IMG/VR virus record: IMGVR_UViG_3300012582_000004
Coordinates: 62,001-126,000 of that record
DNA length: 64,000 bases
Strand: one strand, 5' to 3'
Source: a virus
Of this stretch, positions 25,426 to 54,403 are shown in pieces (positions within the stretch are counted from its first letter, which is position 1; every line of letters begins with the position of its first letter). A model generated the notes under the pieces. That model did no database searches and had not been told where the DNA came from. It worked only from the letters and a program-made list of their open reading frames with translations. Made by a program: the position numbers and the translations under genes.

Positions 25426-26270
25426 GATTTTTAAAAAACTTATTCAAAAGAAATCCAAATAGATTTAAGAAAACTAAATGGGATGATTTAATTGCTGATA
25501 ATCCATTCTCTAAAAAGAATAAAAATAGTGCAAATTCTTATTCAAATAGCATACCTAAATCAGTGCTTCAAATTATAGGAATAAACGTAGCAGTATTTTT
25601 ACTATTATGGATTTGTGAAATTGCTTTACCTATGACATGGTATCAAATGATTGTTAAAATGCTTGCTGTTCCTACAGATATAGAAATATTATATAAACCT
25701 TGGACTGTAATAACATCAGCATTTACGCATTTATCTTTTGGTCATATATTAGGAAATATGTTAGCTATATTTTTCATAGCACCTTATTTCAAAATGGCAT
25801 TCATAGATAAACAAATATGGAATTTATATTTATTGGGACATTTTGTAGGGATATTCTTTTCAATAGGAATTAATATTCTTATATTTGATGATCACGGGAT
25901 GGCTTTAGGTGCATCGTGTGGTGTGTCAGCATTAGTAGCTGGTGTATGTTTTAAATTTCCACAAATGCCAGTGAATATATTTTTTATTAACACAACACTT
26001 AAATGGTTAATTGCTATTTATGTAATACAATCAATATTCATGTTATTCTCACCTAATATGGTTGGTGGTATTGGACATTTATTTGGAATGTTATTAGGTG
26101 TATTGTATGTTCATTTATTAACAAAAAATATAGAAATAGGAAAAATATTTGATTCAATTACTAAATTAAAAATTAAAAAAACAGGTAAAGGTATTAAATA
26201 CGTTTCAATGTATAGTGAAAAATCAGAAAATTCAATTAAAAATATAATTAACAAAAACTTCAAAAAATAA
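25422..26270 (+). CDS. Rhomboid-family intramembrane serine protease
   Basis: Six-helix rhomboid core preceded by a charged cytoplasmic N-terminus of about 45 residues. FTHLSFGHILGNM supplies the HxxxHxxxN motif, GASCGVSAL holds the nucleophile Ser165, and GGIGHLFGMLLG holds the catalytic His219. The usual GxSG appears as GASC-G, with cysteine directly after the serine, which is unusual. It would cleave membrane proteins within or near their transmembrane segment. A phage-encoded rhomboid is rare; it could process a host receptor, a phage lysis protein or an exclusion factor. Overlaps the peptidase gene by one base. Confidence 0.9.
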   Translation: MRFLKNLFKRNPNRFKKTKWDDLIADNPFSKKNKNSANSYSNSIPKSVLQIIGINVAVFLLLWICEIALPMTWYQMIVKMLAVPTDIEILYKPWTVITSAFTHLSFGHILGNMLAIFFIAPYFKMAFIDKQIWNLYLLGHFVGIFFSIGINILIFDDHGMALGASCGVSALVAGVCFKFPQMPVNIFFINTTLKWLIAIYVIQSIFMLFSPNMVGGIGHLFGMLLGVLYVHLLTKNIEIGKIFDSITKLKIKKTGKGIKYVSMYSEKSENSIKNIINKNFKK

Positions 26271-27337
26271 TGAGCGAGATTAAAGAATTGTTTTTAAAAC
26301 TTACGGAATATACTATACCATTCGGAAAAGAAGAATCATTAGAGCCTATTTTACCAACTGGATTTAAAAGAGATAAAATAGGAAACTATTATTATGAAAT
26401 AGGCGAATCTGAAACTCTTTTTACAACACATTTAGATACTTATTCAGATAAGTATGAAAAAGTTGTTCATAAATTTTATAAAAAGGATGGTACACCTTGC
26501 GAAAAAGACGAAGCTGATATTATTGCCACTGATGGAAAAACTATTTTAGGTGGCGATAATAAAGCGGGTTGTACTATTTTAATCAATATGATTAATAATA
26601 AAATTCCAGGCGTTTACTATTTTTTTTTAGGAGAAGAACCGATTTTATCGGGGGGCGTTTGGGGAAGTACACAAGCATTAAAAGCAAATCCAGAATACTT
26701 TAAAAGATTTAAAAGAGCTATTGCATTTGATAGAAGAGAAATGGGATCAGTTATTACTCGTCAAATGGCTAGAAACTGTTGTTCTACAGAATTTACAGAT
26801 GCAATTATAAAAGAATTAGCTGGACAAGGATTGTCATTTAAAAAGGATCCAACGGGATATTATACTGACAGTGGTGTTTTTATGGATGTAATACCAGAAG
26901 TAACAAATCTATCAGCAGGTGTGTGGAATGAACACTCACCCAAAGAATTTTGCTCTATAAAATATCTCGAAAAAGTAGCCGAGGCGGCTTTACATGTTAA
27001 TTGGGAATCATTACCTGTTGTTAGAAAAGCATTTAAAAATGTACCAATTAAAAAAGGAAACTTTGTAACAAAATTTGTAGATGTTAAAAAAACAAAGAAA
27101 ACATTCAACATTATAAATAATTTTCTTGAAATGTATGGATATTTATGTATTAATGTAGAAGATTATGAACCTGAACACGAAATGGTTTTCTCACAATGGC
27201 ATAATGAATCTGAAATTATAATAAAATTTAAAGACGATTCTGTTATTTACGAAGATCAAGAAATACCAGTAAAAGATTTTATTTTGATGTTAGATCCAGA
27301 AGCAGACTTAGAAGAAATATTTAATCCTGAAAAATAG
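26270..27337 (+). CDS. Zinc-dependent peptidase of the M42/M28/M20 type
   Basis: The five ligands of a dinuclear-zinc aminopeptidase/deacylase are in order: His54 with Asp56 in TTHLDT, Asp96 in GGDNKAG, the Glu pair 122-123 in GEEP, Asp154 in FDRRE and His222 in WNEHSPKE. The fold is therefore likely catalytically complete. A C-terminal extension of about 100 residues is acidic and unrecognised. It is translationally linked to the rhomboid gene, so the two may act in sequence on the same substrates. The exact family and substrate are uncertain. Confidence 0.8.
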   Translation: MSEIKELFLKLTEYTIPFGKEESLEPILPTGFKRDKIGNYYYEIGESETLFTTHLDTYSDKYEKVVHKFYKKDGTPCEKDEADIIATDGKTILGGDNKAGCTILINMINNKIPGVYYFFLGEEPILSGGVWGSTQALKANPEYFKRFKRAIAFDRREMGSVITRQMARNCCSTEFTDAIIKELAGQGLSFKKDPTGYYTDSGVFMDVIPEVTNLSAGVWNEHSPKEFCSIKYLEKVAEAALHVNWESLPVVRKAFKNVPIKKGNFVTKFVDVKKTKKTFNIINNFLEMYGYLCINVEDYEPEHEMVFSQWHNESEIIIKFKDDSVIYEDQEIPVKDFILMLDPEADLEEIFNPEK

Positions 27338-29364: not shown

Positions 29365-30879
29365 TCATATATCAAATTTTATTCCTTGAGATAATGGTAA
29401 TTCTTTACTGTAATTTATAGTATTTGTTTGTCTTCTCATATATACTCTCCAAGCATCCGAACCAGATTCAAATCCACCACCAGTTTCCTTATGTCCACCA
29501 AATGCGCCACCAATTTCTGCACCAGATGTTCCAATATTAATATTTGCTATACCACAATCAGAACCCCAAGCAGATAGAAACATTTCAGATTCTCTAATAT
29601 CTGTTGTAAATAATGATGATGATAATCCTTGTTTTACATCATTTTGAATTTCAATAGCATTAGTAATATCACCTTTATATTTCATTAAATATAGTATTGG
29701 CACAAATGTTTCTTTTTGTACAATATCATAACGATTTTCTGCTTCAACTATTGCTGGATAAACATAATTCTCATAAAGATGTCTTCCACCAACAATTAAT
29801 CTACCACCTTCGTGTTCAACTTTAAATATAGCATCTTTAAAAGAATTGACAGCATCCATATCAATTAATGGTCCTACTAATGTATCTTCTTTTAGAGGAT
29901 TACCAATTCTTATATTTTTATATACTTCTACTAACTTCGATTTAACTTCTGAATACACATCTTCGTGTACAATCAACCTTCTTGTTGTTGTGCATCTTTG
30001 CCCAGCAGTGCCAACTGCGCTAAAAGCCACCGCTCTAATTGCTAAATCTAAATCAGCTTTATTAGAGATAATAATAGCATTATTACCACCCAATTCTAAA
30101 ATTGTTTTACCAAATCTATCAGCAACAGCTTTACTAACAATTCCACCCATTCTCGTAGAACCTGTAGCAGACACTAACGCAATTCTTCTATCATTAGCAA
30201 TTAAAGAACCTATTGTAGCATCACCATTAACTAATGAAAATATACCTTCTGGTAATTTATTTTTTACCAATACTTGTTTTATAATATTTTGACAAGCAAT
30301 GGCGGTTAAAGGAGTTTTTTCACTTGGCTTCCATACACATACATTACCACAAACGGCAGCTATCATAGCATTCCAAGCCCATACAGCAACAGGGAAATTA
30401 AATGCTGAAATAATACCAACTATACCAAGTGGATGCCACTGTTCATATATTCTATGCTCAGGACGTTCGGAATGCATAGTCAATCCATATAATTGTCTAG
30501 ATAAACCGACAGCAAAATCACATAAGTCAATCATCTCTTGTACTTCACCTAAACCCTCTTGAAGAATTTTGCCCATTTCTAAAGAAACTAACATACCCAA
30601 AGCTTCCTTATTCTTCCTTAATTCATCACCAATTTGGCGAACAATTTCACCTCTCTTAGGTGCTGGTATAGTTCTCCATATTTTGAATGCTTTCTCAGCT
30701 TCTTGTATAACTCTTTCGTAATGACTTTCATTTGCCATACATACAGATGCTATAACTTCATTATTAATGGGAGATTTAATAACTTTTTCGTTATCCGAAT
30801 ACTCATGTATTAAACCTGTACTTGAACATGGATTTACTTTAGCTATTTCTAATTGATTTAAAACTTCTTTTATTACCAT
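29365..30879 (-). CDS. Aldehyde dehydrogenase, ALDH7/antiquitin type (aminoadipate-semialdehyde/piperideine-6-carboxylate dehydrogenase-like)
   Basis: NAD-dependent oxidation of an aldehyde to the acid. The full 504-residue ALDH fold is present: ISAFNFPVAVWAWN, KPSEKTPLTA, the cofactor strand SATGSTRMG, the general base in LELGGNNA and the nucleophile in GTAGQRCTTTRR, then QKETFVPILY and GGAFGGHKETGGG. The pattern, including AEIGGAFGGHKETGGGFESG and SDAWRVYMRRQTNTINY, matches ALDH7 rather than generic ALDH. In cells this acts in lysine catabolism or detoxification. It is intact and highly bacterial-looking, so probably a recent acquisition; a phage role is unexplained. Confidence 0.93.
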   Translation of the reverse strand: MVIKEVLNQLEIAKVNPCSSTGLIHEYSDNEKVIKSPINNEVIASVCMANESHYERVIQEAEKAFKIWRTIPAPKRGEIVRQIGDELRKNKEALGMLVSLEMGKILQEGLGEVQEMIDLCDFAVGLSRQLYGLTMHSERPEHRIYEQWHPLGIVGIISAFNFPVAVWAWNAMIAAVCGNVCVWKPSEKTPLTAIACQNIIKQVLVKNKLPEGIFSLVNGDATIGSLIANDRRIALVSATGSTRMGGIVSKAVADRFGKTILELGGNNAIIISNKADLDLAIRAVAFSAVGTAGQRCTTTRRLIVHEDVYSEVKSKLVEVYKNIRIGNPLKEDTLVGPLIDMDAVNSFKDAIFKVEHEGGRLIVGGRHLYENYVYPAIVEAENRYDIVQKETFVPILYLMKYKGDITNAIEIQNDVKQGLSSSLFTTDIRESEMFLSAWGSDCGIANINIGTSGAEIGGAFGGHKETGGGFESGSDAWRVYMRRQTNTINYSKELPLSQGIKFDI

Positions 30880-36386: not shown

Positions 36387-37436
36387 ATGAATATTAAAAA
36401 CAAAGAATTTATAGAAAAAGCTAATAAAATACATAATAACAAATATGATTATTCATTAATTAATTATGTTAATAACAGAACAAATATTAAAATAATTTGC
36501 TCTATACACGGAGAATTTGAACAAATTCCAGATAAACACACAAACAGAAAACAAGGATGTCCTAATTGTAGCCCAACAAAAAAAATAACACATGAGTACT
36601 TTTTATCAGAAACTAAAAAAAAATATGATAATTTATTTAAATATACTAATTTAAATTTTAAACATTCGCATGATTACATTAAAATAATTTGTTCTAAACA
36701 TGGTGAATTTAAAGAAAAACCTTATATTCATTTAAAAAGAAATACTTGCATAGGTTGTAAAAAAATAATTGTTCTTAATAGATACATCGAAGAATGTCAA
36801 GAAATACACAACAACAAATACGATTACTCTTTAGTAAAATATACTAATTGTTATAATAAAGTTGATATTATATGCTCAGAACATGGTATTTTTAAACAAG
36901 CATTACATTCTCATAAACAAGGACATGGATGTACTAAATGTGGAATTAGTATCAAATATGAAGGTTACAACTTTATAGAAAAGGCTATTAAAATACACAA
37001 TAATATATATGATTATTCATTGGTTGAGTATAAAAATAATACAATTAAAGTTAAAATTATATGTACAAAACATGGTATTTTTGATCAACAACCAGTATCC
37101 CATTTAATGGGACACGGTTGTCCAAAATGTAAATCTTCTAAAGGAGAAAAACAAATACAAAAATTTTTAGATGATAATGAAATAGAATATAATTATCAAT
37201 ATATAATAAATTTCAATAATAAAAAATATTTATATGATTTCCATTTACCTGAGCATAATTTATATATTGAATATGATGGCGAACAACATTTTAAACCAGT
37301 TAAATATTTTGGCGGATTAAATAAATTTTTACAAAGAATTAATAACGATTTTCAAAAAGATAAGTATTGTATATTAAATGATGTAAATTTATTAAGGATA
37401 CCATATTGGGAAATTATTAATATAGAAAAAACATAA
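36387..37436 (+). CDS. Homing endonuclease: four DUF723-type zinc repeats plus Vsr/EDxHD-like nuclease
   Basis: Four repeats of about 60 residues (roughly 5-60, 66-122, 128-184, 193-248), each with IHNNKYDYSL-like, IICxxHGxF and a CxxC or GC-x-KC, match the DUF723 pattern, likely DNA recognition. The C-terminal domain (about 255-345) has GEKQIQKFLDDN, YDFHLPEHNLYIEYDGEQHF and LLRIPYWE, the layout of Vsr-like or EDxHD homing nucleases. It is free-standing, on the opposite strand from its neighbours, inserted between virion-type and small genes. The second repeat has diverged most. Its 3' end lies inside a 34-bp perfect inverted repeat. Confidence 0.85.
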   Translation: MNIKNKEFIEKANKIHNNKYDYSLINYVNNRTNIKIICSIHGEFEQIPDKHTNRKQGCPNCSPTKKITHEYFLSETKKKYDNLFKYTNLNFKHSHDYIKIICSKHGEFKEKPYIHLKRNTCIGCKKIIVLNRYIEECQEIHNNKYDYSLVKYTNCYNKVDIICSEHGIFKQALHSHKQGHGCTKCGISIKYEGYNFIEKAIKIHNNIYDYSLVEYKNNTIKVKIICTKHGIFDQQPVSHLMGHGCPKCKSSKGEKQIQKFLDDNEIEYNYQYIINFNNKKYLYDFHLPEHNLYIEYDGEQHFKPVKYFGGLNKFLQRINNDFQKDKYCILNDVNLLRIPYWEIINIEKT

Positions 37437-40598: not shown

Positions 40599-42470
40599 AT
40601 GAAGTATATTAAGAATTTTAGTGATAAACTTTTTGAGAATCTTATTTTAGAAAAAGAACTTATCATAAGTGATAAATTAAAAGATATTCTTAAGAAAATG
40701 AGGCATCCATTTGCATCATTAATATTATCTAAGCTTGGTGAAGATTTAGTTGATAGTTCATATATAGATATTGACAAAGAACCTGGTATGATTAATTATA
40801 TTCCTTATAATAAAGAAATTGACTTCCATACTAAGAAAGAGTTAACTGAGCCTGATAAGTGGATTAAAAGTAGAACTAAACAGCCTATAGCTAGAGTTAT
40901 TAAACCAATATTATCAAAGTTGAATATAATATTCAACGAATCAGATATTGAAAAATTTGTAAATGAATATAAGTCATTACAGAAACCATCTAAATTTATT
41001 TTAGCCGAAGGTAAAGATATAATTAAATATTATTCAGAAAGAAACTATTCACATGATAATGAAGAAAGTTCGAGTTTAACACATAGTTGTATGAGATATG
41101 ATGATGCTGGAAAATATCTTTCAGTATACGTAAATAATCCAAATGTAAAATTAGTTGTAATGCTTGATGAATATAATAAAGTTTCTGGTAGAGCAGTATT
41201 GTGGTTAAATGCAACAGCAAATGACAAACCGTGTATTTTTATGGATAGAATCTATACCGCTAAACAAGCATATGAAGAATCATTTAAAAATTATGCTATA
41301 AGTAATAATTGGTGGTTTAAAGTTTATCAAAGAGCATCTGATGATGATATAACTAATGGTAAAGATTCGATAATTAATGCAAAAATTAGAGTTGTTATAC
41401 CAAATGATGATTGGAATCATATTAAAAAACCATATATGGACACACTTCCATATTTAAAAGAGGAGTTTGTAAATAATAAATTTGCATATACATTAAGTAA
41501 TTTTGCAGGAAATACTGATTGGAAAGAAATGTGGACAAATCAAGACGGTGCTTGTACAAAAAGTACTAATTATGAAAGTTCTGAAATGGAAATGAATCTA
41601 ATTTCATCTGAATTAGAATTAGATATTTCTAAATTAGTGCCACAAAAATCAAAAGGTGTGTATCAATACGGAAATGCTAAATATTGGATAACTCCTTTAG
41701 AAAATGCTAAGAAAAGATGTGTAACTAAATTAATGAAAGATGATAATTGGAAAAGATTTGCTACTGTTAAAACTTTATCAAAAAGATATGACTATTTAAT
41801 AAGAAATCAAGTTAGTGAAAAAGTTAAGGATGATATAAAAGAGTCACCAGAAAAATATATTAAATTATTATATGATACTTTAACTCCTTTTTATTGGGTG
41901 AGTAGTTTAACATCAAATATTGTAGATGGTGATAAAAAGGAATTCCTTTCTATTATATTAGAAGGTTTATTAGTAAATAAAACTATTTATAATAAATTTA
42001 TAAATTTAATGCATTCTGAATTATATACATTTTATAATTTTGGTGAAATCATTGATAATTTAAAAGAATTTTCAAAAGAAAATGTAACTAAAATTGTAGA
42101 CTTATATAATGGACATGATACAAAAAGATTGAGACAATTTATAATTGATAAATTTGAGAACAAAAATAAGCCAGATAATAAATTTAATAAATTTGTTGTT
42201 GAAACTTTACCGAGAGAGCAATTAATAGCTGAATTAGATGATACTCTTTTCATTGAATATAATTATATTCAAATTGCTAAAATAAATTCTGAATTTTTTG
42301 ATGAAGAGAAATTTATGCAAGATGTTTATAAAGATGTTAAAAATTCTAAATATAGTTTAAAATGGACATGTGAACTTTTAGCAAGATTTGAAGAAATTAG
42401 AGCAAATGTTATATCTACTGATGGTGTTGAGATTATTATTTCAGGAAAATGTATTTACAGAATAAAATAA
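40599..42470 (+). CDS. Paralogous large protein A of unknown function, capsid-targeting-like N-terminus (623 aa)
   Basis: First of three related large proteins here. It starts MKYIKNFSDKLFENLILEKE, resembling a head-targeting leader. The shared core (about residues 140-270) contains HSCMR (Cys164), then SVYVNNPNVKLVVML, SGRAVLWLNA, FMDRIYTAKQAYEESF and NNWWFKVYQ. The conserved Cys-Arg, Gly-Arg-Ala, Asp-Arg-Ile-Tyr and Trp-Trp residues look like an enzymatic or ligand site. The C-terminal half is helical and divergent. It starts two bases after the gp6-like stop. It may be a late, head-packaged effector; function unknown. Confidence 0.7.
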   Translation: MKYIKNFSDKLFENLILEKELIISDKLKDILKKMRHPFASLILSKLGEDLVDSSYIDIDKEPGMINYIPYNKEIDFHTKKELTEPDKWIKSRTKQPIARVIKPILSKLNIIFNESDIEKFVNEYKSLQKPSKFILAEGKDIIKYYSERNYSHDNEESSSLTHSCMRYDDAGKYLSVYVNNPNVKLVVMLDEYNKVSGRAVLWLNATANDKPCIFMDRIYTAKQAYEESFKNYAISNNWWFKVYQRASDDDITNGKDSIINAKIRVVIPNDDWNHIKKPYMDTLPYLKEEFVNNKFAYTLSNFAGNTDWKEMWTNQDGACTKSTNYESSEMEMNLISSELELDISKLVPQKSKGVYQYGNAKYWITPLENAKKRCVTKLMKDDNWKRFATVKTLSKRYDYLIRNQVSEKVKDDIKESPEKYIKLLYDTLTPFYWVSSLTSNIVDGDKKEFLSIILEGLLVNKTIYNKFINLMHSELYTFYNFGEIIDNLKEFSKENVTKIVDLYNGHDTKRLRQFIIDKFENKNKPDNKFNKFVVETLPREQLIAELDDTLFIEYNYIQIAKINSEFFDEEKFMQDVYKDVKNSKYSLKWTCELLARFEEIRANVISTDGVEIIISGKCIYRIK

Positions 42471-42471
42471 C

Positions 42472-42490
42472 TAATATATAGTGAGTAAAA
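42472..42490 (+). promoter_or_regulatory. Candidate phage late promoter
   Basis: TAATATATAGTGAGTAAAA precedes paralogue B by 11 bases. Confidence 0.5.
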
Positions 42491-42501
42491 CTTAAAAGAT
42501 T

Positions 42502-44535
42502 ATGAACGAATTAATTCAATTAATTAACATTTTAAATGGACTTGTAGAAGAAAAAGAAATCGTTCTTGGTCCAACTCTTATCAAAAAATTAAAGGCTATG
42601 GATAGCCCTATTGCAAAATTCATTTTAGATTGTGCTGTTGAAAAACTTGACTTAGACGTCGATTATTCATTTGTTGAATTTGATGAACAAGATGCAATGG
42701 TATCTCTTCTTAAAAATAGATGGGAGGATGAAGTCGGCAAAGATATATTCACTTCAAAAAGAAGAGAAAAGATGAAAATAAGCCGTTTAATTATGGCTTT
42801 AACTGTTAAGAAAGGTATTAAATTTCCAGAAAAAGAAATTGAAGAATTTGTTAATCAATATAAATCTTCACAAAAGAAATTTGAATTTAGAGAAATAGAA
42901 GGTAGAGAAATAAAAGAATGGTATAATGAAAGAAATTATACTAATGATAGGGATGGGAATCCGTCTCTACACAATTCTTGTATGAGATTAGCAGAGACAC
43001 AAAGCTACTTTACTGTTTATATGGAAAGCCCCAATGTTAGATTATTAGCATTGATTGATAATGACACAAATAAATTAATGGGTAGAGCTATTGTATGGAA
43101 AAATGCACATATGGATGGTGTTGGTGAAGTAACTTATATGGATAGAGTTTATACCGCTAAACAAGCATATGAAAATTTATTTAAAGATTATGCTAAATCT
43201 AAAGGTTGGTGGTTTAGAGTAGTTCAAACAAATCAAGATATGACAATTACAAATGGTACTGAAAAAAAATCAAACTGGATAATTGATTGTCAAATTGCGG
43301 ATTTAGATTGGTCGCGTTATAATAAACCTTATATGGATTCATTAAAATATATGACATATATGAGAAAGAATGGAAGATATGTTCCTGTAATGACAAATAA
43401 TTCAAATAACTATAAAGAATTGTGGCAATCAACATCAGGTTCGGGTACAACAAATAATAATTATGTCAGTGAGCACGAAAGACTACTATCAGTAGCTAGA
43501 GCTTTAGGTATTGATCAAGCATCATTAAAAGTATCCGATAATGATGAAAAAATAATAGTGCGTGATGATGGTGTTGATTTTGCATCATATTCTATGCAAG
43601 AATTGCAATTAGTTGGTGCTATAAAATTTATAGAAAAAGATAAAATAAGAGACATCGATCCTGCCAATTATATAAACATTATTCCTAATCGTGAAATTTG
43701 GGAAAAACTTAGTGAAATGTCGGTTGATGTTATAGTAGATAAATTAGTAGAATTTGAAAAATATATTAATAAACAAAATGGTGTTAATTTATTAATTGAT
43801 ATTAGTACAGATGAAGAAATTCTTAGACAATTCAAATATTATTTAAATAAAAGATATGATGATGTACTTCATTATTTAATGAAAAATGCTAAACCAAATT
43901 TAGAAAGATTTGTAGAATCTGCATCGAAATCAAAAGTAAATAAGAAAAAAATAGTTAAAGAAAGTATAGATGATGATAACGATGAAGATGATGTTAAAAA
44001 TGATACTAAAGGTGTGATACAAAAAGGTGATATAAATGAGCCAGTATCATTAGATAACTTATTAAAACAAACAGAAGTTAATATTCAACATATGGTGGAC
44101 TTTTATGAAAAAAGTAAAGCTAACAAAGATGTATGTATATCATTTTTAAAACATAAAATTGCTCGTTTAAAAATAAGATTTTTCTTGAAGAAATTTGGTA
44201 AAGATGATGATAAAAGAAAACGTTTGGTTATAGAACAAGTTATACCAGCATTATCAAACAGTATGCAACCATTAGAGTTTGTAAAAAATTATCTTAAAAT
44301 TTCTAATAAAGAATTCTTCAAAATAATTAGTGAAAATTTAAATAGAAATATTATTGAAAGAGTTGCAATGAACACTCTTCAAAATAATCCTGACGTTAGA
44401 AAAGAACTATTATCTATCGATAATAGAGAATTGAGAAGTGGTAATTACTATATCTATAAAGTTAAAGATGATGATAAAAAGGAAGGTGATGTGGAAATTA
44501 AGAAACGAGGACCAGGCAGACCCAGAAAAAAATAA
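42502..44535 (+). CDS. Paralogous large protein B of unknown function (677 aa)
   Basis: Second member of the family. The core has NSCMRLAETQSYFTVYM (Cys160), MGRAIVWKNA, YMDRVYTAKQAYENLFKDYA and KGWWFRVVQ, in the same order and spacing as A. After residue 480 it gains an acidic linker (SIDDDNDEDDVKND) and ends with a basic RGPGRPRKK, an AT-hook-like tail that could bind AT-rich DNA. It lacks the leader of A. Its stop lies in the 52-base palindrome at 44533. Confidence 0.7.
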   Translation: MNELIQLINILNGLVEEKEIVLGPTLIKKLKAMDSPIAKFILDCAVEKLDLDVDYSFVEFDEQDAMVSLLKNRWEDEVGKDIFTSKRREKMKISRLIMALTVKKGIKFPEKEIEEFVNQYKSSQKKFEFREIEGREIKEWYNERNYTNDRDGNPSLHNSCMRLAETQSYFTVYMESPNVRLLALIDNDTNKLMGRAIVWKNAHMDGVGEVTYMDRVYTAKQAYENLFKDYAKSKGWWFRVVQTNQDMTITNGTEKKSNWIIDCQIADLDWSRYNKPYMDSLKYMTYMRKNGRYVPVMTNNSNNYKELWQSTSGSGTTNNNYVSEHERLLSVARALGIDQASLKVSDNDEKIIVRDDGVDFASYSMQELQLVGAIKFIEKDKIRDIDPANYINIIPNREIWEKLSEMSVDVIVDKLVEFEKYINKQNGVNLLIDISTDEEILRQFKYYLNKRYDDVLHYLMKNAKPNLERFVESASKSKVNKKKIVKESIDDDNDEDDVKNDTKGVIQKGDINEPVSLDNLLKQTEVNIQHMVDFYEKSKANKDVCISFLKHKIARLKIRFFLKKFGKDDDKRKRLVIEQVIPALSNSMQPLEFVKNYLKISNKEFFKIISENLNRNIIERVAMNTLQNNPDVRKELLSIDNRELRSGNYYIYKVKDDDKKEGDVEIKKRGPGRPRKK

Positions 44536-44584
44536 AGTAATAAAAAAGCCCTTTAAAATTTTAAAGGGCTTTTTTATTACTTTA
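44533..44584. terminator. Perfect 52-nt palindrome, bidirectional terminator
   Basis: Each 26-base half is the exact reverse complement of the other, with core AAGCCCTTT/AAAGGGCTT. It includes the stop codons of both convergent genes (44533-44535 and 44577-44579). Confidence 0.9.
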
Positions 44585-46397
44585 TTTTGTATATGTAATG
44601 TCTGAGAATATTGTGTTCTCGCTCATCAATTGATAGTAATTTTTTTCTTTGCACATCTTTAATTTGATTTTCAATCAAATCTACTAAATTAATATATCTC
44701 TCTATTTTTTTATATTTATCTGTTGTAAATGATTTTTCAATAAAATCTAATACATCAATACATAATGATGAATTTACCAACATATCAATAATATTAGAAT
44801 CAGTATAATCATCTAAAGATATTTCACTAAAAAATCTTTGTTTTATTTCGGTAGTACCATATTCTTCTAAAAACATTCCAACTACTTCATATAAAGCTTT
44901 TCTTGAATTAGTATTATCATTATCATAACCATATTCAATAATTTTACAATTTAATTCATTAAACTCATTAAGCTGAGTCCAACTACTAAATAGGTATGGT
45001 GCAGATGTTACAACTTGTGAAAAACCAAATTGTGAATGTTGAAATTTATCAGTAAGTCTTCTATAATAATCTCTATTTGTTATAAATGGTCTGACTAAAT
45101 TTAAAAATTCTTCTCTGCTTAATTTTGTGAAAATTCTTACGTAGTTATTTTTATCTTTCTTTAAAGTTGACCAAAATTTATCCTTATTTTCACGAACATA
45201 TTTAATTAATTCATTTTTATAATTTCTGTAAAAGTCACTACTTAAATTTGGAAACTTTAACTGAAATTTTACAATATTTTCAAATGGATTTTTTAAAAAT
45301 ATACTTTTTACAGAATAATTTAATTCATCACCGCTATTAAAAATTTGGTATGATTCTTCACCAATTGAATATGTATTATTATCAATTTTTATAAAATCAT
45401 TAATATTTTTGTTAAGTACTTGTGCAAGAGAAAATGGTTTATCCAATGGATGTGAATAACTATGATTAATAACAACATTACTTTGGTGATCACCAAAGCT
45501 TTGTCTATGTGCAAGAGTATCGTTATTATTTGTTAAAAATAATCCATATGTACCATCACTCTTAGGTAAAAATTTCATTAGTCTTAGTGAATCAACATAA
45601 GGACTTTTAACATTATAATTATAGTTAACATCTGTTCTAATTTCGGCTATTAAAAGTGGTTTTAATTGTTGTGTTATACCATTGGTTATTTCTGGATTTT
45701 CATTACCTTGTCTTATTTTAAACCACCATCCTCTTGCTGTAGCATACTGTTTGAATTTTTCAACAATTGAATCATTGATAGAATAAATTCTATCCATATA
45801 AGTTCCAACAGCACCATTAATTAGAATGCCATTCCAAATTAACGCTCTTCCTTCAACTTTTCCATCATCATTTAATAATGCAAGAACACCAACAACTTGT
45901 GAATTTTCCGTATATAAAGTGAACCATTCTTGACATTTATCAAATCTCATACAAGAATTCAATAGAGAACACCCAGATGATGAATATGATGAGTTTTTAT
46001 TATATGTACTTTCATTGTAATATTTACCAAAGTCTTTACCGTGAGATAATATAAAATTACCATTATCTCTAGCACATCTATATTTATTTACAAATATTTC
46101 AATTTCGGCATCTGTAAATTCAATATTTTTACTTTGTAATATTGATCTTACGACTCTACCGATTTTAACACTTGTTCTAACTTTAACTTTCCATTTTTCT
46201 TCCTCTGATAATCCATCTTCTTTATTTATGGGAAGATAGCTGAATATTGTAGTATCTGTTTCGGAATCAATGTAGCTAAATTTTAAATCCAATACATCTT
46301 CTTTGGAATTCAAATCCAATAAAATAATAGAAATTTTATCATTAATACGTCTCAAAGTAGAAATTAATGAATTTCCTAAAATAATTTTCTTACTCAT
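44577..46397 (-). CDS. Paralogous large protein C of unknown function (about 606 aa)
   Basis: Third family member, on the opposite strand. Core: LLNSCMRFDKCQEWFTLYTE, EGRALIWNG, YMDRIYSINDSIVEKFKQYA and RGWWFKIRQ. I start at ATG 46397 (MSKKIILG), since the longer frame begins with a TTG at 46460 and a TATATATGAAAT-type motif lies in between; alignment with A and B shows the family normally has about 14 more residues, so the TTG start remains possible. Function unknown. Confidence 0.68.
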   Translation of the reverse strand: MSKKIILGNSLISTLRRINDKISIILLDLNSKEDVLDLKFSYIDSETDTTIFSYLPINKEDGLSEEEKWKVKVRTSVKIGRVVRSILQSKNIEFTDAEIEIFVNKYRCARDNGNFILSHGKDFGKYYNESTYNKNSSYSSSGCSLLNSCMRFDKCQEWFTLYTENSQVVGVLALLNDDGKVEGRALIWNGILINGAVGTYMDRIYSINDSIVEKFKQYATARGWWFKIRQGNENPEITNGITQQLKPLLIAEIRTDVNYNYNVKSPYVDSLRLMKFLPKSDGTYGLFLTNNNDTLAHRQSFGDHQSNVVINHSYSHPLDKPFSLAQVLNKNINDFIKIDNNTYSIGEESYQIFNSGDELNYSVKSIFLKNPFENIVKFQLKFPNLSSDFYRNYKNELIKYVRENKDKFWSTLKKDKNNYVRIFTKLSREEFLNLVRPFITNRDYYRRLTDKFQHSQFGFSQVVTSAPYLFSSWTQLNEFNELNCKIIEYGYDNDNTNSRKALYEVVGMFLEEYGTTEIKQRFFSEISLDDYTDSNIIDMLVNSSLCIDVLDFIEKSFTTDKYKKIERYINLVDLIENQIKDVQRKKLLSIDEREHNILRHYIYKIK

Positions 46398-46918: not shown

Positions 46919-47485
46919 ATGAGAGTTGATCACATGGCTTTTAGGGTAGCAGATAAAGAAAAAACTGCTAAATTTTTCATAGAATGTTTTGGCTATAGAT
47001 TAGCCGAAGATTTACCAGATGGATTTGATATTACATTTGAAGATAATACTACAGCTAAATGTTTAGTATTATTACCACCAGAAAAAGCTATAGGTGGTGC
47101 TAATTTACCATGGTTAACATATATGACAGATTTTGATAAGAAGTTAGGACAAGAATATCATTTAGCTCCTGAAATATTTATATCGCAAGGTTCGCCTGGT
47201 TCTGTAGTTGATGAATGGGTTAAAAAAAGACAAGTGTATGGTGGAGCACTTTTACACCATATCGCATATCAAGTTGATTCGGTTGAACTAAAAATGAAAG
47301 AATGGCAAGAAAAAGGATATGCTGAATTTACTACAGAAAAACCTTTAACATGCCCAGGTCTTACTCAAGTATTTACTAAACCATCCGAACTTACAGGTAT
47401 TATATATGAATTTATTGAAAGAGAGTCGCACGGTTTCTGTAAAGAGAATGTAAAAGACTTGATGAATTCTACTAAAGGACTATAA
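46919..47485 (+). CDS. VOC-fold protein resembling 4-hydroxyphenylpyruvate dioxygenase
   Basis: Vicinal-oxygen-chelate protein of 188 residues made of two beta-alpha-beta-beta-beta modules. Candidate metal ligands are His5 in VDHMAF, His124/125 in LLHHIAYQV and Glu in IIYEFIERESHGFC. The C-terminal ERESHGFCKENV resembles the end of the catalytic domain of HPPD, though the protein is half its size. It may be a dioxygenase, a glyoxalase-like detoxifier or an antibiotic-resistance-type protein. A terminator follows. Confidence 0.72.
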   Translation: MRVDHMAFRVADKEKTAKFFIECFGYRLAEDLPDGFDITFEDNTTAKCLVLLPPEKAIGGANLPWLTYMTDFDKKLGQEYHLAPEIFISQGSPGSVVDEWVKKRQVYGGALLHHIAYQVDSVELKMKEWQEKGYAEFTTEKPLTCPGLTQVFTKPSELTGIIYEFIERESHGFCKENVKDLMNSTKGL

Positions 47486-52894: not shown

Positions 52895-54403
52895 ATGATG
52901 GAATACTTCTTTAATTATGACTATTTTAGAATAAATGAAGCTGATGATAATAAAGGGCTTAAAGCAAGTCTTAATAATAATATTGGAAATAATGTATCTA
53001 ATGTAGATAATACAAAAATAGCTGATGCGCCAATAAATACTGCTGGTACAGATGGTACATCGGGTACTAATATAATTGAAAGTACTGATGAGACATCTTT
53101 AAATAATAAAATTCAAGAATGGAATACATTATATTCACAAGCATTTAAATTCCAAAACGATATGCCCAAAGACGTTAACTCTAAAGTTGATTTAACTAAT
53201 ATAGGACAAAAGAACCCTAATAATGACACTCAAATAACAGATTATAATAATAGTTTATTAGCTAAAGTAAGGGATGGTATAATTAAAATAGCAGAATTAC
53301 TTACAAGTAAAAATGGTGACAGCTTTATGTTTAAAGGTAGGACAATAAATATAGTTGGACACACAAGTTCACCAGCTAAACCAGAATATAATATAATTTT
53401 GGCAAAAAGAAGATCTGATTTTGTTATTAATGCTATAAAAAGTGCAATGAATACGATATTAAAAAATTCAGCGAAACCAGAAGATATTGTATCATTTGTT
53501 TCTGCACCTAAAGGAGAAACAGAATTAATTATCAGAAATGATACACAAAGTGGTGATGCTATATTAAATACTAATAATAAAGAGATTGAGGGTAGCATTG
53601 ATGTTAAACAATACCAAACACCAGAACAAAAGCAGGGATTGAATAGAAGGGTTGTAATAGGCTTAGATAAGTTTCCTATTAGGTATAATCAACCAGAGAA
53701 AGAAATTATTTCTAGCAGTACTGATATACCTATTATAAATCCTACGGATGTTAAATTTAATACCGATAGTTATATCTTAACATCAAAAAGCGATTCTATT
53801 TTAACTAATTTTGCGAATGAAATTTTAGAAGCTATTAAAAATAATAGTAATTTAACTGACATATATATTTGTTCGCATTCACATAAAGCTAAAGAAGAAG
53901 ATCCTAATGATATAATAGATCAAGAAAATAAAATATTCTACATAAGTTTAAATAGAGCGGTATCGGTTAAAAACTTTTTACAAAACAGGGGAATAAAAAT
54001 CAAATATCACTTAATTCCATGTTCATATTTAATACCTAAAGGAAATAGCGCAGACGAAAATAAAAGAGTTGAAATATATTTCAACGAAAATAATGATGTT
54101 AAAAAAGCTAAAAATGCATTTAATCAATTATCTAAAAAATATGGTATTGAAAATAATAATGGTGAATATGATGCTGATAGAATACTTACCAATAAAGTTT
54201 TAAGAAAAGATATCATCACTAATATAATTGCTTGTATGAAAGAAGGTGTAAAAGAAAAATGGATACCTTTAGAATTATGGTATGATGAATATGGTACTAA
54301 TGAAGATAATTTAAAGGCATATAAGAAAGAGTTGGAAAATACTGTATCTAAATATGGTAAAAATAAATACTCGGTAGAAGATTTTGTCTACATAAAGAGA
54401 TAA
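52895..54403 (+). CDS. Virion-associated protein with two OmpA-like domains and capsid-targeting-like N-terminus (502 aa)
   Basis: Starts with two ATGs, then YFFNYDYFRINEADDN, in which INE matches the T4-type leader cleavage pattern. Two peptidoglycan-binding OmpA-like modules follow a low-complexity linker: the first (about 100-260) has INIVGHTSS and GLNRRVVIGL, the second (about 270-385) has PTDVKFNTDSYILTSKSD, IYICSHSHKA, LNRAVSVKNFLQNRGI and NKRVEIYF. A helical domain ends the protein. It sits among baseplate genes and probably contacts the host cell wall or organises head contents. Confidence 0.75.
   Translation: MMEYFFNYDYFRINEADDNKGLKASLNNNIGNNVSNVDNTKIADAPINTAGTDGTSGTNIIESTDETSLNNKIQEWNTLYSQAFKFQNDMPKDVNSKVDLTNIGQKNPNNDTQITDYNNSLLAKVRDGIIKIAELLTSKNGDSFMFKGRTINIVGHTSSPAKPEYNIILAKRRSDFVINAIKSAMNTILKNSAKPEDIVSFVSAPKGETELIIRNDTQSGDAILNTNNKEIEGSIDVKQYQTPEQKQGLNRRVVIGLDKFPIRYNQPEKEIISSSTDIPIINPTDVKFNTDSYILTSKSDSILTNFANEILEAIKNNSNLTDIYICSHSHKAKEEDPNDIIDQENKIFYISLNRAVSVKNFLQNRGIKIKYHLIPCSYLIPKGNSADENKRVEIYFNENNDVKKAKNAFNQLSKKYGIENNNGEYDADRILTNKVLRKDIITNIIACMKEGVKEKWIPLELWYDEYGTNEDNLKAYKKELENTVSKYGKNKYSVEDFVYIKR

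What the first reader, a model, noticed from the sequence alone, without database searches (positions are those of the whole stretch)
40599..46397. Three adjacent large paralogues with a conserved SCMR / GRA / DRIY / WW core
Proteins of 606-677 residues share an ordered set of invariant motifs that looks like an active site, yet no known family comes to mind. One has a head-targeting-like leader, another an AT-hook-like basic tail, and the third is on the opposite strand. About 9% of the window is spent on them. They might be injected effectors comparable in role to T4 Alt/Mod.
Basis: partly seen in the sequence, partly recalled or inferred. Interest (0 to 1): 0.75.

Follow-up and report, generated by a model that had tools for sequence, protein, structure and literature searches.

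The report
Phage GNAT-like protein family with leaders
Three neighbouring proteins of a giant phage belong to a large, unnamed family of acetyltransferase-shaped proteins that in several unrelated phages is paired with a metal-dependent peptidase, and about half of the sampled members carry a T4-like tag that probably loads them into the virus head for injection into the host.

Summary
Three real paralogues (623, 677, 606 aa) share an ordered core with no useful Pfam, PHROG or PDB sequence match. They are 3 of 14 copies in a 636-kb phage; 735-, 642- and 635-kb phages carry about 7-17 each, and Cellulophaga phages and Thermus phage TSP4 one each. The core is modelled confidently (pLDDT 94). All 50 listed PDB fold matches are GNAT-superfamily proteins, but the best TM is 0.46 and the acetyl-CoA loop is missing, so I call it GNAT-like, not an acetyltransferase. 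The gene is paired with an intact di-metal M20/M28-type peptidase in Cellulophaga and Thermus phages and, through more distant relatives, KP34-like phages; some of these peptidases carry the family's own N-terminal modules, and both genes are multiplied in huge phages. Of 134 distinct members 70 (against 33 of 1008 other ORFs) carry a leader with the spacing of the T4 capsid-targeting sequence, usually followed by a gp21-like cleavage site; the genome encodes an S77-like prohead protease. The injected-effector idea is thus credible for leader-bearing members, but for the window's own copies the leader is degenerate (P1, P2) or absent (P3). Substrate and chemistry are unknown.

The parts
40599..42470 (+). 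P1, 623 aa, GNAT-like family member
40599..40652 (+). P1 degenerate leader MKYIKNFSDKLFENLILE ending in a gp21-like (L/I)xE site
   Evidence: does not pass the strict pattern; LILE|K at the family's fixed offset
40653..40976 (+). P1 N-terminal N and M modules (ISDKL...; IARVI...FVNEYKS)
   Evidence: also found on peptidases of marine huge-phage contigs
40986..41534 (+). P1 GNAT-like core, residues 130-312, with SCMR, GRA, DRIY, WW and PYMD
   Evidence: AF2 pLDDT 94.2; Foldseek hits all GNAT
42502..44535 (+). P2, 677 aa, family member; degenerate leader, AT-hook-like C-terminal tail at 44497-44532
42877..43425 (+). P2 GNAT-like core
   Evidence: alignment A7
44577..46397 (-). P3, 606 aa, family member without leader; starts at the N module (MSKKIILG)
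45507..46064 (-). P3 GNAT-like core
   Evidence: alignment A7
26270..27337 (+). phrog_4191-type M20/M28-like peptidase, 355 aa, homologue of the partner peptidase (not adjacent here)
   Evidence: LR756504.1:466750-467523, E 3.8e-52; ORF

Best explanation
P1-P3 belong to a large phage family with a GNAT-like core, a two-part N-terminal module and variable C-terminal tails. The core most likely transfers an acyl or aminoacyl group to a host or phage protein early in infection, probably without the usual acetyl-CoA loop, and works with a dedicated di-metal M20/M28-type peptidase that trims or reverses the modification. In huge phages the family has multiplied, and many copies carry a T4-type capsid-targeting leader that the prohead protease cuts during head maturation, so the mature protein is packaged and injected; leaderless copies such as P3 act only after expression. 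Shown by computation: the family, the predicted fold, the missing acetyl-CoA loop, the peptidase pairing and co-expansion, the leader statistics, an S77-like protease gene. Inferred: enzymatic activity, donor, substrate, order of action with the peptidase, actual packaging.
For: Confident model and GNAT-only PDB fold hits. Neighbouring peptidase in phi40:1, phi38:1, Calle_1 and TSP4 and beside the distant relatives in KP34, VP93, Khlen, KpV48, DE18, fHeKpn01. Metal ligands HxDT, GxD, EE, DR, H conserved in 97-100% of 31 peptidases; 5 of 15 peptidases within 1 kb of a family gene in W02-W05 against 0.71 expected, p=2e-4. Same N+M modules on peptidases, including two not used to build the model. 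Peptidase co-expansion 8/6/5/4 in four huge phages. Leader 70/134 vs 33/1008, and 18/758 N-termini vs 2/1886 internal Met; same spacing in T4 ipII/ipIII; fixed cleavage-like site in 40 of 53; S77-like protease.
Against: TM-scores at most 0.46. No [RQ]xxGx[GA] loop in register in any of 91 rows, so the core may be inactive. No experimental activity known. In the window's own genome family genes and peptidases are not adjacent. P1 and P2 leaders fail the strict pattern and P3 has none. S77 matches are below Pfam's cut-off. gp037 of Cellulophaga phages is not labelled structural.
Confidence: 0.45

Rival explanations
1. Non-enzymatic: the GNAT-like core is a dead or binding-only domain, and the family are diversified, partly packaged binders or anti-defence inhibitors, in the manner of T4 internal proteins.
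For: Acetyl-CoA loop missing; many divergent paralogues with variable tails; T4 internal proteins are a diverse set of injected defence proteins sharing only the targeting sequence (PMC3012670).
Against: Ten residues, several polar or charged (C, R, D, Y), are invariant across 91 diverse rows, and the partner peptidase keeps its metal ligands.
Confidence: 0.22
2. Small-molecule or nucleotide metabolism: the core acylates an amino acid or nucleotide and the M20/M28-type peptidase is a deacylase or aminopeptidase acting on the same pathway.
For: M20 enzymes include N-acyl amino acid deacylases (general knowledge); neighbours in phi38:1 are replication and metabolism genes.
Against: Expansion to 14-17 divergent copies with variable tails and leaders suits host-protein targets better than one metabolite.
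Confidence: 0.17
3. Ordinary acetyl-CoA dependent protein acetyltransferase, like phiKMV-type Rac, with an atypical loop.
For: Fold hits are GNAT acetyltransferases; phage GNATs acting on host RNA polymerase are known (PMC7552054, PMC7824862).
Against: Canonical loop replaced mostly by TxxDSD.
Confidence: 0.1
4. The leader is not a packaging signal: it is a conserved N-terminal segment with another role, and the proteins are never in the virion.
For: No virion proteomics exist for these phages here; of 8 other leader-bearing proteins scanned, 7 had no Pfam hit and one was methyltransferase-like; gp037 not labelled structural.
Against: Same spacing as T4 ipII/ipIII, including positions that matter for targeting and processing; cleavage-like site at a fixed distance; S77-like protease in all four huge phages.
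Confidence: 0.28

Closest known systems
GNAT superfamily (e.g. RimI 7n1l, SpeG 4jly, 1wk4)
   Same: Predicted core topology; all 50 listed PDB fold hits in two searches
   Different: TM at most 0.46, about 10% identity, no acetyl-CoA loop motif, invariant SCM, DRxY and PYxD not part of the GNAT signature
phiKMV-type Rac (predicted phage acetyltransferase causing RNA polymerase alpha cleavage)
   Same: Predicted GNAT-type phage protein acting on the host (PMC7552054)
   Different: No leader or peptidase gene partner seen in what I read; sequence relation not tested
T4 internal proteins IPII/IPIII and Alt
   Same: Leader spacing identical to ipII/ipIII and a gp21-like site
   Different: Mature proteins not homologous; Alt is an ADP-ribosyltransferase; packaging not shown here
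phrog_6980 / phrog_13313 (KP34 gp10-like early proteins of Autographiviridae, unknown function)
   Same: SCM...RA...R/I-x-Y...PYxD in order, CxxC-rich tails and the same adjacent peptidase
   Different: No significant single-sequence match; profile comparison E 2.2e-4 but probability 21%

Membership tests
GNAT superfamily | GNAT fold | tested here: inconclusive
   All 50 listed PDB hits are GNAT, best E 2e-4, but TM at most 0.46
GNAT superfamily | Acetyl-CoA loop [RQ]xxGx[GA] after strand 4 | tested here: not met
   One regex match in 91 rows, and that one off-register
GNAT superfamily | Acyl-CoA binding or transfer activity | not testable with these tools
   Needs biochemistry
ADP-ribosyltransferases (T4 Alt/ModA/ModB) | ART sequence or fold match | tested here: not met
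   None among listed matches
T4-type capsid-targeted internal proteins | N-terminal targeting sequence with T4 spacing | tested here: met
   For the family: 70/134; for the window proteins: P1 and P2 degenerate, P3 none
T4-type capsid-targeted internal proteins | Prohead protease in the same genome | tested here: inconclusive
   S77 match E 4.4e-6 below Pfam cut-off, in a protein with GEFDHP and SSRA motifs
T4-type capsid-targeted internal proteins | Presence in the virion | not testable with these tools
   No proteomics for these phages; fHeKpn01 gp12/gp13 detected but with carry-over
phrog_4191 M20/M28-type peptidase (partner, also at window 26270-27337) | Di-metal ligands HxD, D, EE, D, H | tested here: met
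   97-100% conserved in 31 sequences

The most novel reading that the evidence does not exclude
A widespread, undescribed phage modification system: a GNAT-fold transferase that does not use the canonical acetyl-CoA site, partnered with a dedicated di-metal peptidase that can share its recognition modules, and turned in huge phages into a set of capsid-targeted effectors injected ahead of gene expression.
Probability: 0.27. Interest if true: 0.85.

Novelty: new variant of a known kind. Interest (0 to 1): 0.62.

Why it matters
It gives an identity to a family that occupies 14 genes in one of the largest phage genomes and recurs, directly or as distant relatives, in cultured phages (phi38:1, TSP4, KP34). 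The peptidase partner makes its chemistry testable, and the leader plus cleavage site gives a sequence rule for listing candidate injected proteins of huge phages that cannot yet be cultured.

Tried and rejected
Pfam, PHROG and PDB sequence searches gave nothing useful; antibody light-chain PDB hits at E 0.04 are chance. A scan of cellular genomes with one pattern found no relative, which does not prove absence. DnaJ-type zinc fingers were suspected from CxxCxGxG repeats, but no Pfam match passed. The N and M modules were sought on other proteins; in the loci held only family members (including two short fragments) and peptidases carry them. Peptidase adjacency does not hold in the window's own genome.

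Full report
Where it is. Window 40000-62000 is 100% identical to LR756504.1 (636,363 bp, uncultured phage) at 480399-502399; the window itself lies in a 347,857-bp virus record.

What is there. The three ORFs exist as stated and are paralogues. A profile of them finds 14 copies in the 636-kb phage, about 17 in the 735-kb phage, about 7-8 each in the 635- and 642-kb phages once fragments are merged, and one each in the Cellulophaga phages. Two IMG/VR scans brought in many more, giving 134 distinct cores. Thermus phage TSP4 has one at E 1e-28. Ten residues are invariant over 91 diverse rows: Y145, S163, C164, Y177, R198, W202, D216, Y219, P278, D281 in P1 numbering.

Fold. AlphaFold2 gave pLDDT 90.6 for P1 residues 1-330 and 94.2 for the core alone. 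All 50 PDB hits listed are GNAT-superfamily proteins in both searches, best E about 2e-4. TM-scores stay at or below 0.46, and the acetyl-CoA loop is absent in register from every row, its place mostly taken by TxxDSD. I therefore claim a GNAT-like fold, not an acetyltransferase.

Distant relatives. BFVD fold matches led to Autographiviridae proteins. KpV48_08, KP34 gp10, VP93 gp6, Khlen gp37 and Lull_008 carry SCM, (A/G)R(A/G), RxY or IYG, and PYxD in order. A profile comparison aligned 176 columns collinearly at E 2.2e-4 but probability 21%: homology is likely, not proved by this test alone. TSP4, a clear family member, is intermediate in sequence (ARAILW, GRIYAQ, PYVD).

Peptidase partner. 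The family gene is beside a phrog_4191 peptidase in phi40:1, phi38:1 and Calle_1 and beside the homologous hydrolase in TSP4; the distant relatives sit beside the same peptidase in KP34, VP93, Khlen, KpV48, DE18 and fHeKpn01. Its metal ligands are conserved. The four huge phages have 8, 6, 5 and 4 such peptidases. In W02-W05, 5 of 15 lie within 1 kb of a family gene against 0.71 expected, p=2e-4 by random placement. Several peptidases of marine huge-phage contigs begin with the family's N and M modules; two of them, L029 and L090, were not used to build that model. In the window's own phage the two gene families are not adjacent; one peptidase copy lies in the window at 26270-27337.

Leader. 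The pattern [FY]xx[FY][ILVM]xE shortly after the start Met is present in 70 of 134 family members and 33 of 1008 other ORFs of the same loci (a set that includes spurious frames), and in 18 of 758 predicted proteins of the 636-kb phage against 2 of 1886 internal Met positions. T4 ipII and ipIII match the same spacing and are the only 2 of 194 ORFs in 98 kb of T4 to do so; none of 112 phi38:1 ORFs does. In T4 IPIII, residues 4 and 7 matter for targeting and 8 and 10 for processing (PMC9026906). In 40 of 53 leader-bearing rows an [LI]xE|[SAGK] site sits at one fixed offset before the N module, and fully leaderless members start near that point. S77-like protease matches occur in all four huge phages; in this one the protein lies beside a 563-aa protein whose start resembles T4 gp23 by my reading. 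P1 and P2 have degenerate leaders; P3 has none.

How it probably works. The best explanation is a transferase with a peptidase partner acting on proteins early in infection, with many copies pre-loaded in the head in huge phages. Donor, substrate, order of action and packaging are inference.

Limits. The leader pattern was defined on this family and its genome and then checked on T4 and phi38:1. IMG/VR loci are related to one another, although identical cores were merged, so the counts are not independent events. The fHeKpn01 particle list includes RNA polymerase, nucleases and endolysin, so virion presence of gp12 and gp13 is weak evidence (PMC7291057). The absence of gp037 from the labelled structural proteins rests on the record annotation, not on the raw MS data.

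Noticed in passing
LR756504.1 (loci L153-L184): At least 18 predicted proteins, most apparently unrelated to this family, start with a T4-like leader such as MKNIQSFKEFLNES or MSFIKKFNDFLNES: a candidate list of packaged proteins. One (213251-214366) looks like a chance match.
   Followed up: partly
L022, L029, L033, L043, L049, C-terminal tails: Long runs of DnaJ-like CxxCxGxG repeats (up to 12) follow the core in many relatives; no Pfam match passed.
   Followed up: partly
L012, L029 relatives; KP34 gp10; KpV48_08: Tails carry repeats of the type WSDYHxxYVxxxDV, sometimes with CxxC, shared between huge phages and KP34-like phages.
   Followed up: no
LR756504.1:185342-187636: S77-like prohead protease domain fused to a long region with repeated (N/S/G)YxEY(I/L/V)AE units.
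   Followed up: no
window 29365-30879: Full-length aldehyde dehydrogenase (Pfam Aldedh, E 1e-126) in a phage genome.
   Followed up: no
window 52895-54403: 502-aa protein with OmpA-family domain (E 1.9e-11).
   Followed up: no
window 36387-37436 and 46919-47485: A DUF723/DUF4379 treble-clef protein and a glyoxalase-family protein flank the region.
   Followed up: no
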